DNA of 64,000 nt. Origin: Oscillospiraceae bacterium (GTDB lineage: Bacteria > Bacillota > Clostridia > Oscillospirales > Ruminococcaceae). The position numbers and the translations under genes are program-made. Position 1 is the stretch's first letter, and the number at the start of each line of letters is the position of its first letter. Below the pieces are notes generated by a model. The model saw nothing but the letters and a program-made list of their open reading frames with translations. It was not told where the DNA came from and did no database searches. Positions 12,665 through 19,478 of the stretch are shown piece after piece. The stretch covers positions 1 through 64,000 of the forward strand of contig WRLG01000001.1 of assembly GCA_009777725.1 (NCBI GenBank), read 5' to 3'.

Positions 12665-13645
12665 TTACAGTTTCAGCCACAAAGCGGGGCGAACGCCACC
12701 GACATAGTTGACATCGTCGACACTGCTGCCAGTGACATTGACAACGCCGTAATCGTAGACAAAGGCGGCATTAATGCTGCTGTTGCCGGGCGACCGAAGC
12801 CACCACCATGAAGATTCGTTGCCATATTTTAACATTCTTTTGGAATTATTTTCATCAGTGACATAAATCTTATTATCAAGATAAAAATCTTTCCACTCAT
12901 CCCATTTTGTTTTACCTTTATCCCAATACTCCCTCTTTATTTCAGCCGCCAAGGATTTTTTAGCACTGCTGTTCAGTTGCACTCGGCTGTCTCCGAAATA
13001 ACGGCAGACTTCTTGAAGCGAAAGCAGAAACACTCTATCTGTCGTTTCCGCTCCGCCGTTTGTTCCCCACCACGGATTATTAGGATTTAAATTTGGCACA
13101 GGGATAATTTTCGCAATTTCAAATGGGCTGAAGTTACTTAAAAATTCTCCGTTTAGGTATTTCCTTAAATCGCAATCAGCCCACGTTATATTCTCCAATT
13201 TGTTGTGATAAGCACGCTTTTCTATGACATTTTCTGTAATAATTAATGCGGCGTTATTCTGAATGTCAAGCACCCGCCAGTTATATCCGCCAAATTGGAT
13301 TACACTGCCGATTATGGGAGTTGGAGGTAGAGCTGTTTGTTTTTTCAATTGCTCTTTTAATGTGTTTATTTCCTTCTCTTTTTGGAACAACTCCGTCTTT
13401 TTTTGAGATAGCTCCGCCTTTAAACGCATTTCATTCTGCTCGAATCGGAATAATTCCGCCTTTAAATGGCTTTCTTTTCGCTCAAACTCCCATTTCATGC
13501 GAGCAGGATTCACGGAAGCAGCCAACCAATACTCATACTCCTCGTCCGAAACGATTATCGGACGAAAATCATCAAACCCGCATATTGGGCACGTAGTTAT
13601 ATTTTCCGGAACATTATGTTTACGGCATACAGGGCAAGTTTTCAT
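12665..13645 (-). CDS. Zinc-ribbon / coiled-coil / DUF6273-like (C-type-lectin-fold) variable protein, paralog A
   Basis: MKTCPVCRKHNVPENITTCPICGF (two CxxC), heptad coil, IQFGGYNWRVLDIQNNAALIITENVI..TWADCDLRKYLNGEF, C-terminal WWWLRSPG-(28 aa)-GGVRPALWLKL. Confidence 0.85.
   Translation of the reverse strand: MKTCPVCRKHNVPENITTCPICGFDDFRPIIVSDEEYEYWLAASVNPARMKWEFERKESHLKAELFRFEQNEMRLKAELSQKKTELFQKEKEINTLKEQLKKQTALPPTPIIGSVIQFGGYNWRVLDIQNNAALIITENVIEKRAYHNKLENITWADCDLRKYLNGEFLSNFSPFEIAKIIPVPNLNPNNPWWGTNGGAETTDRVFLLSLQEVCRYFGDSRVQLNSSAKKSLAAEIKREYWDKGKTKWDEWKDFYLDNKIYVTDENNSKRMLKYGNESSWWWLRSPGNSSINAAFVYDYGVVNVTGSSVDDVNYVGGVRPALWLKL
12701..12784 (-). repeat. DGR-like variable block A (84 nt)
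   Basis: 28 codons between CGGTCGCCCGGC and GGTGGCGTTCGCCCCGCTTTGTGG; equal in length to, and aligned without gaps with, blocks B and C; most codons NNY. Confidence 0.75.
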
Positions 13646-13653
13646 TTATAGAA

Positions 13654-14988
13654 TTATCCTTTCAGCGTTGTTTGCCGGTGAACAGGCTTTTGAGCGGTAT
13701 TTTGAAGATTTAAAAGATTGTTATTGTCAGAAGATACTCTTTCATATCCCTCGCGACATACGAATTCATCGGTATTAATTCCGCTGTCTGAAAGATGATT
13801 GCGTATACTTCTAAGCCATTCCTCACGTAGCGAATCGGTATTATCCGTGAAAAAACCATGAATTTGAAGATTATTATCCATACCTTCAGCGGGTTCAATA
13901 ATTACGACAATAGAGTTTTCCGCACCATCAGTGAGTTTAATATGAACTGCTTCTGTGCTTTCTTCTCCCTCATAAGTAGAATCTGCATATCTCCATTCTG
14001 TCCCTGAGAAAGCATCAACTATGTCTTGCGCTAAGTCTGCACGCTTTTGCGATGCGGTTAATCTCATTCGAGCAATTTCTTCAGCTTGCTGCATAATTTC
14101 ATTACTCCGCTCTAATTCATTGCTCAATTCTTTAAGGTCTTTTACAGGTATATTTTCCGGGGTTTTTACTCCCGCTTCAATTTCGGTTATCGTATCCCGA
14201 ACATTGTTAAGCATTCCGTCAGACCAATAATTAATATCAGCGGGAACGATTTCTTTACCCTCGCTTGTTTCAATTTCAAATTTCATTTCCTCGCGGAACA
14301 CAAGGTTGGATTTTGTATCAGCTAATGCCTGTGTAAATATGACATATTGACGTTTCCATTCTTCTTCGGCGACAATTATTTCACTCCGAAGTGCAATTGC
14401 CCTGTTGAACCTTTCCCGTGCGTTTGCAATCGTAGCTTCAAATCGCCTTCCTGTACGCATATCTGAATCAGTTTGCGATAATTCATCCATTAGTGATTGC
14501 AGTTTTCCCGGAGCAAACATATCGTGTCGATATTGTCCTATCTTAGAAAATACAGCACGGCACTGATTTACCCAATACTCTGCAACCGCTTTGTTTTCGC
14601 GTTTCTCTGAATCCATTTGTGATTGTATGCTGTTTATTGCCGTATTCAATTCCCTTTTATTATGCTCCATTTGTGCTTGAAGTTCTGTCCGTAAATTATC
14701 AAGTTTTCCGTCAAAGTTTAACGCTTGTTGTGCCAGTTTTCTGTCCTGTTGCCTTGTCAGACGCGTTATATCGCTGTGAAGCCCGGCTATTTCGCTGTTT
14801 AGCGTATTGCTCAGTGCGTTCACTCGGGTTTGTGCTTCTCTTTGAGCTGCTTGAGCCGCTTGTGCTCGCCTTTCTGCTTGCTGTTGCGATTCGGCTGCGG
14901 TTCTTGCGTTATTTACCAATCTATCCCGCTCCGTCCTTGTCATGGTTATCCTCGTTTCCTTAATTCCGCTCATTTTGAGTTCCTCCAA
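13654..14988 (-). CDS. Long coiled-coil protein of the operon
   Basis: Q/A/R/E-rich heptads (AESQQQAERRAQAAQAAQREAQTRVNALSNTLNSEIAGLHSDITRL); stop lies 8 nt before paralog A start. Confidence 0.8.
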   Translation of the reverse strand: MEELKMSGIKETRITMTRTERDRLVNNARTAAESQQQAERRAQAAQAAQREAQTRVNALSNTLNSEIAGLHSDITRLTRQQDRKLAQQALNFDGKLDNLRTELQAQMEHNKRELNTAINSIQSQMDSEKRENKAVAEYWVNQCRAVFSKIGQYRHDMFAPGKLQSLMDELSQTDSDMRTGRRFEATIANARERFNRAIALRSEIIVAEEEWKRQYVIFTQALADTKSNLVFREEMKFEIETSEGKEIVPADINYWSDGMLNNVRDTITEIEAGVKTPENIPVKDLKELSNELERSNEIMQQAEEIARMRLTASQKRADLAQDIVDAFSGTEWRYADSTYEGEESTEAVHIKLTDGAENSIVVIIEPAEGMDNNLQIHGFFTDNTDSLREEWLRSIRNHLSDSGINTDEFVCREGYERVSSDNNNLLNLQNTAQKPVHRQTTLKG

Positions 14989-18443: not shown

Positions 18444-18524
18444 AGCTTCATTTTCCTCCTCTGTAAATAGAAATTTTAGGACTAATTTACGGGAAATTTA
18501 ACAAATTTTGATTTAATGATATAA

Positions 18525-19478
18525 TCACAGTTTCAACCACAAAGCGGGACGGACACCACCAAGACTAGCATCATCATCGACAGGGTAGCCAGCGACCTGG
18601 ACACCACCGTCATAACCGACATAGGCGGCATCATCGCTGCCGTCGCCGGGCGACCGAAGCCGCCACGTATGCCCTTTTTCCCTCAAATAATTTGCCACTC
18701 TCGCACTACCATACATATCGCAAAGCATGTGACCGTTTGCATTTTGAACAAACTTTTTCATTTTTACATCATAGCCATAGCGTTTTTTACTTCGCAAATC
18801 TCCGCTATCTCCAAAGTATCTTACGAGTTCGTTCAAGCTCAACAAGAAAATACTGTCCGTTGTATTACTGCCACCATCTGTATTATACCATTGATTATCT
18901 GCGTTTTCGTTCGTTACAGGGATAATTCTTGCCTTGTCATTTGGGCTGAACTTTTTAACATTGTTGATAAATTCGCCGTTTAGATATTTTCTCAAATCGC
19001 AATTAGCCCATGTTATAGCAGTCCTGTTACCATGATACGCTTTCTTCTCAATAATTTCTTCAGTAATAATCAATGCGGCGTTATTCTGAACATCAAGCAC
19101 TCGCCAGTCATAACTGCCGAATTTGATTATACTGCCGATTTTGGGATGTGAAGATGGGAGTGGAGCGAGTTTCGATAGGGTTTGCACATAGAGAGCTGTT
19201 TGTTTTTTCAATTGCTCTTTTAATGTGTTTATCTCTTTCTCTTTTTGGGATAATTCCGCCTTTAGACGTATTTCATTCTGCAATAATTCTGCCTTTAATC
19301 GCCTTTCATTCTGTTCAAACGTCCATTTCATACGAGCAGGATTCACGGAAGTGCCTAACCAATACTCATACTCCTCGTCCGAAACGATTATCGGGCGAAA
19401 ATCATTAAATTTGCATATTGGACATACTGATACGTTTTCATCAACAGCATTATTTTCACAAATAGGGCAAGTTTTCAT
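18525..19478 (-). CDS. Zinc-ribbon / coiled-coil / DUF6273-like variable protein, paralog C
   Basis: MKTCPICENNAVDENVSVCPICKF (ATG 19478 with aaggagaaagacc SD), DUF6273-like domain, WRLRSPG-(28 aa)-GGVRPALWLKL. Confidence 0.85.
   Translation of the reverse strand: MKTCPICENNAVDENVSVCPICKFNDFRPIIVSDEEYEYWLGTSVNPARMKWTFEQNERRLKAELLQNEIRLKAELSQKEKEINTLKEQLKKQTALYVQTLSKLAPLPSSHPKIGSIIKFGSYDWRVLDVQNNAALIITEEIIEKKAYHGNRTAITWANCDLRKYLNGEFINNVKKFSPNDKARIIPVTNENADNQWYNTDGGSNTTDSIFLLSLNELVRYFGDSGDLRSKKRYGYDVKMKKFVQNANGHMLCDMYGSARVANYLREKGHTWRLRSPGDGSDDAAYVGYDGGVQVAGYPVDDDASLGGVRPALWLKL
18561..18644 (-). repeat. DGR-like variable block C (84 nt)
   Basis: 28 codons between CGGTCGCCCGGC and GGTGGTGTCCGTCCCGCTTTGTGG; ungapped with blocks A and B. 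Confidence 0.75.

What the first reader, a model, noticed from the sequence alone, without database searches (positions are those of the whole stretch)
12701..18644. Three 84-nt variable blocks with the adenine-mutagenesis signature of DGR variable repeats
Blocks 12701-12784, 15939-16022 and 18561-18644 are each exactly 28 codons, align without gaps, and sit between near-identical anchors (CGGTCGCCCGGC upstream; GGYGGYGTYCGYCCCGCTTTGTGG downstream). Translations: NSSINAAFVYDYGVVNVTGSSVDDVNYV, YISNRAAYVYSDGNVIVNGILIGSVSVV, DGSDDAAYVGYDGGVQVAGYPVDDDASL. Interspersed codons (GCC GCC, GTC, GTC, GTC, GGC) are invariant, while the others vary mainly in their first two bases and end in C/T (e.g. AAT/CGT/GAT, GTT/AAT/GGT, ACT/AAT/GCT, AGC/ATC/TAC). 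That is what mutagenesis of AAY codons in a template would give.
Basis: partly seen in the sequence, partly recalled or inferred. Interest (0 to 1): 0.93.

Follow-up and report, generated by a model that had tools for sequence, protein, structure and literature searches.

The report
Remote DGR variable repeats, template missing
A termite-gut Clostridia genome carries eight copies of a hypervariable protein patch, three of them in this window, that were written by a reverse-transcriptase mutation system on another contig; that system's RNA template appears to have been deleted, so the patches look like fossils of a protein-diversifying machine.

Summary
The three 28-codon blocks (minus strand) lie at the C-terminal end of DUF6273 domains. 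The same genome has five more such genes on contig C14, around one intact DGR-type reverse transcriptase (RT) and an Avd gene. Template repeats (TRs) from related DGR loci predict which bases vary: all 29 template-adenine sites at codon positions 1/2 vary among the eight blocks, against 1 of 16 non-adenine sites (p = 5e-11). Silent third bases show that blocks were copied as cassettes: window gene W2 matches C14 gene C2, and W3 matches C1 (2 of 24 third bases differ), although the genes around them differ at about half of third bases. So the window genes were trans ("remote") targets of the C14 system. No TR exists in the held assembly. In 25 of 28 related loci a TR lies upstream of the RT; here most of the avd-RT spacer, TR included, is absent. 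Silent drift among the VRs fits a lost or long-idle template. Remote targets, DUF6273 targets and TR-less loci are each known, so this is a new member of a known kind. Caveat: this is a metagenome assembly.

The parts
12665..13645 (-). W1: DUF6273 target gene, zinc-ribbon-like N-terminus, coiled coil, DUF6273 with VR at its C-terminal end
   Evidence: ORF; Pfam DUF6273 113.5 bits; AlphaFold2 model mean pLDDT 90.3; zinc ribbon read from the Cys pattern only
12701..12784 (-). VR of W1, 28 codons
12677..12700 (-). 3' anchor of W1 VR (initiation-of-mutagenic-homing-like), GGTGGCGTTCGCCCCGCTTTGTGG
15330..16805 (-). W2: DUF6273 target gene; VR internal, with a further ~180-aa C-terminal repeat-like extension
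   Evidence: ORF; Pfam DUF6273 105.6 bits at residues 121-299 of 491
15939..16022 (-). VR of W2, 28 codons; shares its third-base barcode with C14 gene C2
15915..15938 (-). 3' anchor of W2 VR
18525..19514 (-). W3: DUF6273 target gene
   Evidence: ORF; Pfam DUF6273 105.9 bits
18561..18644 (-). VR of W3, 28 codons; third bases closest to C14 gene C1 (2 of 24 differ)
18537..18560 (-). 3' anchor of W3 VR
19499..21490 (-). Hsp70-like gene fused to a truncated DUF6273 that keeps a mutated 3' anchor (GGCGTTCACTCCGCTTTATGG) but has lost nearly all of the VR
   Evidence: Pfam HSP70 and partial DUF6273; anchor with 3 mismatches; junction sequence
10096..12597 (-). neighbour: AAA ATPase plus trypsin-like peptidase protein, candidate signalling/effector partner
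   Evidence: Pfam Trypsin_2, AAA, AAA_lid_6; role inferred
16802..17392 (-). neighbour: radical SAM protein, NrdG/PflA-activase-like, between two target genes
   Evidence: NrdG 86 bits, under the curated cut-off of 126

Best explanation
The three blocks are variable repeats of remote target genes of a diversity-generating retroelement whose Avd and reverse transcriptase genes lie on contig C14 (C14:21845-23472). In the DGR mechanism the RT with Avd copies a template RNA, miscopying its adenines, and the cDNA replaces the VR between the anchors. Here common templates wrote VRs at both loci, rewriting the roughly 15-18 AAY-type codons of each DUF6273 domain. Third-base barcodes and VR lengths show at least two versions of the template over time. 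The template has since been lost: most of the avd-RT spacer, TR included, is missing, the VRs have begun to drift at silent sites, and two further DUF6273 copies are truncated. Shown by data: VR anatomy, adenine-site rule, sharing of cassettes between the two loci, absence of a TR from the assembly. Inferred: the retrohoming chemistry, true rather than assembly loss of the TR, and a role as diversified ligand or antigen sensors wired to AAA/peptidase, vWA, kinase and phosphatase partners.
For: RT and Avd in the same genome. Adenine rule: 29/29 A sites vary versus 1/16 non-A, using relatives' TRs only; relatives' own TR/VR pairs 209/357 versus 5/561. Cassette copying: W2-C2 and W3-C1 differ at 48-50% of gene-body third bases but 8% of VR third bases; 26 of 28 pairs show less silent divergence in the VR than in the gene body, uncorrelated with gene relatedness (r = 0.15). 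TR loss: no TR by pattern, DNA or translated search of the whole assembly; TR present upstream of the RT in 25 of 28 surveyed relatives and the homologous spacer gap here.
Against: No TR in this genome, so the template is inferred from relatives. Only assembled sequence was available; the TR loss could be an assembly or strain effect. C14 and C1 are joined only by binning and shared paralogues. Third-base drift could also come from repeated retrohoming out of a slowly changing TR. The C-type lectin fold was not confirmed here.
Confidence: 0.85

Rival explanations
1. The DGR is intact and active, but its TR is missing from the assembly (misassembled, unbinned, or present only in some cells) or is supplied in trans from an unassembled element.
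For: RT and Avd ORFs are intact. The bin is a metagenome assembly in 49 contigs. In Thiohalocapsa, strains with and without a TR coexist (PMC10907252).
Against: The spacer is continuous inside a 72-kb contig and aligns cleanly on both sides of the gap. VR third bases have drifted by 2-5 of 24 even within a barcode group, unlike relatives with a TR, where 4 of 306 differ from the template.
Confidence: 0.25
2. No DGR wrote these blocks: DUF6273 paralogues diverged by diversifying selection and gene conversion.
For: DUF6273 domains are widespread (1778 homologues of W1). Third bases vary between the two barcode groups.
Against: Selection does not explain silent-site homogenisation, and gene conversion would homogenise positions 1/2 too; the VRs do the opposite. 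Variable sites match A sites of relatives' TRs 29/29 versus 1/16. RT and Avd sit among five of the copies.
Confidence: 0.03
3. The window's VRs were written by a second, separate DGR (now lost, or not in the assembly) rather than by the one on C14.
For: Two barcodes and two length classes (26-27 and 28 codons) imply at least two templates.
Against: Only one RT is found in the genome. The anchors next to that RT are identical to the window's, relatives of this RT use TRs with these anchors, and both barcode groups include members at both loci.
Confidence: 0.06

Closest known systems
Treponema denticola DGR with dispersed target genes (PMC4891356)
   Same: One RT, up to seven target genes scattered in the genome, VRs varying mainly at template adenines; some targets left over from a different or lost TR.
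   Different: There the TR is present in the strains with a core cassette; targets are TvpA-type rather than DUF6273 proteins.
Cyanobacterial DGRs with remote variable proteins (PMC7517822)
   Same: Remote VRs at the 3' end of lectin-like domain genes, recognised by conserved anchors.
   Different: Other domain families; TR present; W2 here has its VR in mid-gene.
Degenerate DGR loci of Thiohalocapsa PB-PSB1 (PMC10907252)
   Same: DGR loci lacking a TR or RT, targets next to vWA, kinase and trypsin-like genes.
   Different: There MITE-like arrays replaced the TR and intact loci of the same class remain; here the spacer is simply shorter and no second RT is found.
Phage DGRs with DUF6273 targets: tentaclins and Faecalibacterium prophages (PMC10743442, PMC11792537)
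   Same: VR maps to the DUF6273 domain (its C-terminus in the Faecalibacterium prophages).
   Different: Those are phage receptor-binding proteins; here targets are cellular proteins with zinc-ribbon/coiled-coil or other N-terminal domains.
Related DGR loci in termite-gut Clostridia contigs (L153, L158, L160, L163, L167 and others)
   Same: Order target-VR, avd, TR, RT with the same anchors; RT 64-76% identical.
   Different: They keep the TR and show near-perfect adenine specificity.

Membership tests
Diversity-generating retroelement (complete cassette) | DGR-type reverse transcriptase | tested here: met
   RVT_1 59.3 bits, LPLGNQASQ and YMDD motifs, PDB chain 8ub7 RT E = 1.8e-41 (that 8ub7 is a DGR RT is from my own knowledge), relatives of this RT sit beside TRs
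Diversity-generating retroelement (complete cassette) | Avd accessory protein | tested here: met
   PHROG 'Avd protein of DGR' 85 bits; Pfam bAvd 37.8 (cut-off 40) and NCBIfam Avd 48.7 (cut-off 80) fall just or well under their curated cut-offs
Diversity-generating retroelement (complete cassette) | Variable repeats between conserved anchors in a target gene | tested here: met
   eight VRs
Diversity-generating retroelement (complete cassette) | Variation confined to template adenines | tested here: met
   29/29 versus 1/16, with A sites taken from relatives' templates, not the genome's own
Diversity-generating retroelement (complete cassette) | Template repeat in the genome | tested here: not met
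   none in the held assembly; spacer gap. For this reason a complete or active DGR is not claimed
Diversity-generating retroelement (complete cassette) | Ongoing retrohoming | not testable with these tools
   needs reads or an assay
Remote DGR target gene | VR far from the RT, written by the same template as local VRs | tested here: met
   shared barcodes W2-C2 and W3-C1 across contigs
C-type lectin fold target | CLec fold with the VR on its surface | tested here: inconclusive
   confident model with a terminal beta-rich region, but the PDB fold search hit only a DUF6273-like part of an IgA peptidase; the literature reports a CLec-like fold for DUF6273
vWA-MoxR ternary conflict system | MoxR ATPase, vWA protein and VMAP together | tested here: inconclusive
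   vWA, kinase, PP2C and TraD-like ATPase genes on C14, AAA-trypsin in the window; MoxR and VMAP were not specifically searched, so it is not filed as one

The most novel reading that the evidence does not exclude
The RT and Avd remain functional without an adjacent template and use a template supplied in trans (an unassembled plasmid or phage, or a template kept in only part of the population), so that diversification of eight scattered sensors is switched on and off by gain and loss of the template alone.
Probability: 0.1. Interest if true: 0.72.

Novelty: new member of a known kind. Interest (0 to 1): 0.47.

Why it matters
Metagenome surveys for DGRs look for a VR next to the RT and so miss remote targets, as Roux et al. 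2021 state for their own survey (PMC8144416). This case shows that remote targets can be recognised even without a TR, by combining the adenine sites of relatives' templates with silent-base barcodes that record which template version wrote each VR. It also gives a testable picture of how a DGR decays: the template goes first, with RT and Avd still intact.

Tried and rejected
(1) TR in the avd-RT gap, in the gap between C2 and avd, or in the fetched stretches of C14 (1-45000): none. (2) C1:232906, a perfect 3'-anchor hit, looked like a TR candidate but is a truncated, frame-broken DUF6273 remnant. (3) Simple duplication with drift or selection: rejected by the codon-position and barcode data. 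(4) Strain variants of W1 among 5.8 billion proteins: the closest hits were this genome's own contigs (244,105 and 72,126 bp), others at most 55% identical, so no population test was possible. (5) The same-genus genome G001 has no RT match and only one DUF6273 fragment with a stop. (6) The PDB fold search did not independently confirm a C-type lectin fold. (7) One script read alignment rows in place of some loci; its survey of relatives was discarded and redone.

Full report
WHAT IS THERE. The three blocks exist exactly as described, on the minus strand, each 28 codons, in frame, between conserved anchors. They sit at the C-terminal end of DUF6273 domains in three ORFs: 12665-13645 (W1), 15330-16805 (W2) and 18525-19514 (W3). 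A fourth gene, Hsp70-like, at 19499-21490, ends in a truncated DUF6273 that retains the 3' anchor but has lost nearly all of the VR.

THE REST OF THE SYSTEM. Anchor searches of the whole genome (2.77 Mb, 49 contigs) found five more VRs, all on contig C14. They end five DUF6273 genes, here called C1 to C5, at L012:4345-5418, 8746-9726, 11442-12581, 12601-13785 and 14897-15925. Between C2 and C3 lie a 135-aa Avd-like gene and a 365-aa reverse transcriptase, the only RT found in the genome. The RT carries LPLGNQASQ and YMDD, best matches the PDB reverse transcriptase chain 8ub7, and matches a PHROG RT family with 401 bits. C14 is the 72,126-bp metagenome contig Ga0099364_10000402. The nearest RT relatives are Clostridia MAGs and contigs; that their sample codes denote termite guts is my own knowledge.

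ADENINE RULE. I found TR/VR pairs in related loci by looking for gapless near-repeats whose mismatches fall on A. Across 12 TR/VR pairs, 209 of 357 template A sites are changed against 5 of 561 other sites. Four relatives' TRs were aligned without gaps to the first 24 codons of the VRs of this genome. Taking A sites from those TRs alone, all 29 A sites (all at codon positions 1/2) vary among the eight VRs, 25 of them with three or more bases, while 1 of 16 non-A sites at positions 1/2 varies (Fisher p = 4.6e-11). No sequence of this genome was used to choose the sites, so this is an independent prediction. The eight VRs are not independent draws of a phylogeny-free sample, but the contrast is between site classes within the same sequences.

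CASSETTE COPYING ACROSS CONTIGS. Silent third bases tell which template wrote a VR. W2 and C2 share one barcode (2 differences in 24) and the other six share another (2-5 differences); between groups there are 8-11. Gene bodies do not follow this. W2-C2 differ at 48% of gene-body third bases but 8% of VR third bases, W3-C1 at 50% and 8%. C2's closest gene relative, C5, differs at 28% in the body and 46% in the VR. In 26 of 28 pairs the VR is less diverged at silent sites than the gene body, with r = 0.15 between the two. VR segments have thus been replaced as cassettes from common templates at both loci while first and second positions were randomised. Gene conversion alone would also homogenise positions 1/2; diversifying selection alone would not homogenise position 3. 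Lengths of 28 versus 26-27 codons also point to more than one template version.

THE MISSING TEMPLATE. Pattern, DNA and translated searches of the assembly returned only the VRs, truncated remnants and weak chance-level hits. In 25 of 28 related RT loci surveyed, an asparagine-coding template-like stretch lies upstream of the RT, usually by about 300-400 nt. Aligned with seven relatives, the spacer here keeps the avd end and the GGAAACGGCGGGAAAACAC stretch before the RT but lacks about 290 alignment columns that include the whole TR. In relatives VR third bases equal the TR's (4 differences in 306), whereas the VRs here have drifted, which fits a template lost or idle for some time. An assembly or population-level explanation cannot be excluded because this is a metagenome bin.

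HOW IT WORKS, AND WHAT FOR. Most likely a DGR on C14 diversified local and remote sensors. The W1 model is confident (mean pLDDT 90) with the VR in the terminal beta-rich part. DUF6273 as a DGR target is described for gut phages (PMC10743442, PMC11792537). Neighbours include an AAA-trypsin protein and a radical SAM protein in the window, and vWA, kinase, PP2C, transglutaminase and TraD-like ATPase genes on C14. One vWA protein (L012:16679-17677) begins with the same N-terminal domain as the C14 targets (read from the sequences), suggesting homotypic pairing. This resembles the conflict-system sensors proposed by Kaur et al. 2020 (PMC7159879) and Dore et al. 2024 (PMC10907252). That function is inference.

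KNOWN OR NEW. Remote targets (PMC4891356, PMC7517822), DUF6273 targets and TR-less degenerate loci (PMC10907252) are each known. A complete DGR is not claimed, because the TR test failed in this assembly. The claim that these blocks were written by a DGR mechanism stands on the adenine rule, the barcodes and the RT/Avd.

Noticed in passing
window 19499-19700 and L018:1497-1687 (G000:C1:232906): Two DUF6273 remnants have independent deletions that run from inside the domain to just before the GGCGTTCGCC 3' anchor; possibly failed homing events primed at the anchor.
   Followed up: partly
window 15330-15935: W2 carries about 180 residues of repeat-like sequence after the VR, so its VR is not at the gene's 3' end as is usual for DGR targets.
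   Followed up: no
window 15060-15297 (minus strand): Short tandem-repeat coding stretch of a motif like RIDGNVIRDIHGN(V/L)THR between two target genes; no family assigned.
   Followed up: no
L012:16679-17677 versus L012:4345, 8746, 11442, 12601, 14897: A vWA protein and the five C14 target proteins share an unnamed N-terminal domain (MKxQIIQALHKIKxxFGxxxFxNxRxFKAxLxDV...), a candidate homotypic adaptor.
   Followed up: partly
window 25166-25221, 47430-47485, 50068-50123: Three copies (91-98% identical) of a 56-nt tRNA-like segment, possible att sites of integrated elements.
   Followed up: no
window 199-6918: Type I restriction genes with the HsdR reading frame apparently split over several ORFs (1066-2562, 2324-3625, 6019-6918).
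   Followed up: no
window 8180-9481: 433-aa leucine-rich repeat protein close to the target cluster.
   Followed up: no
L155:9941-11020: Another related RT (73% identical) with no TR found upstream; the ORF before it resembles an ATP synthase epsilon subunit, so this may be a second TR-less or relocated RT.
   Followed up: partly
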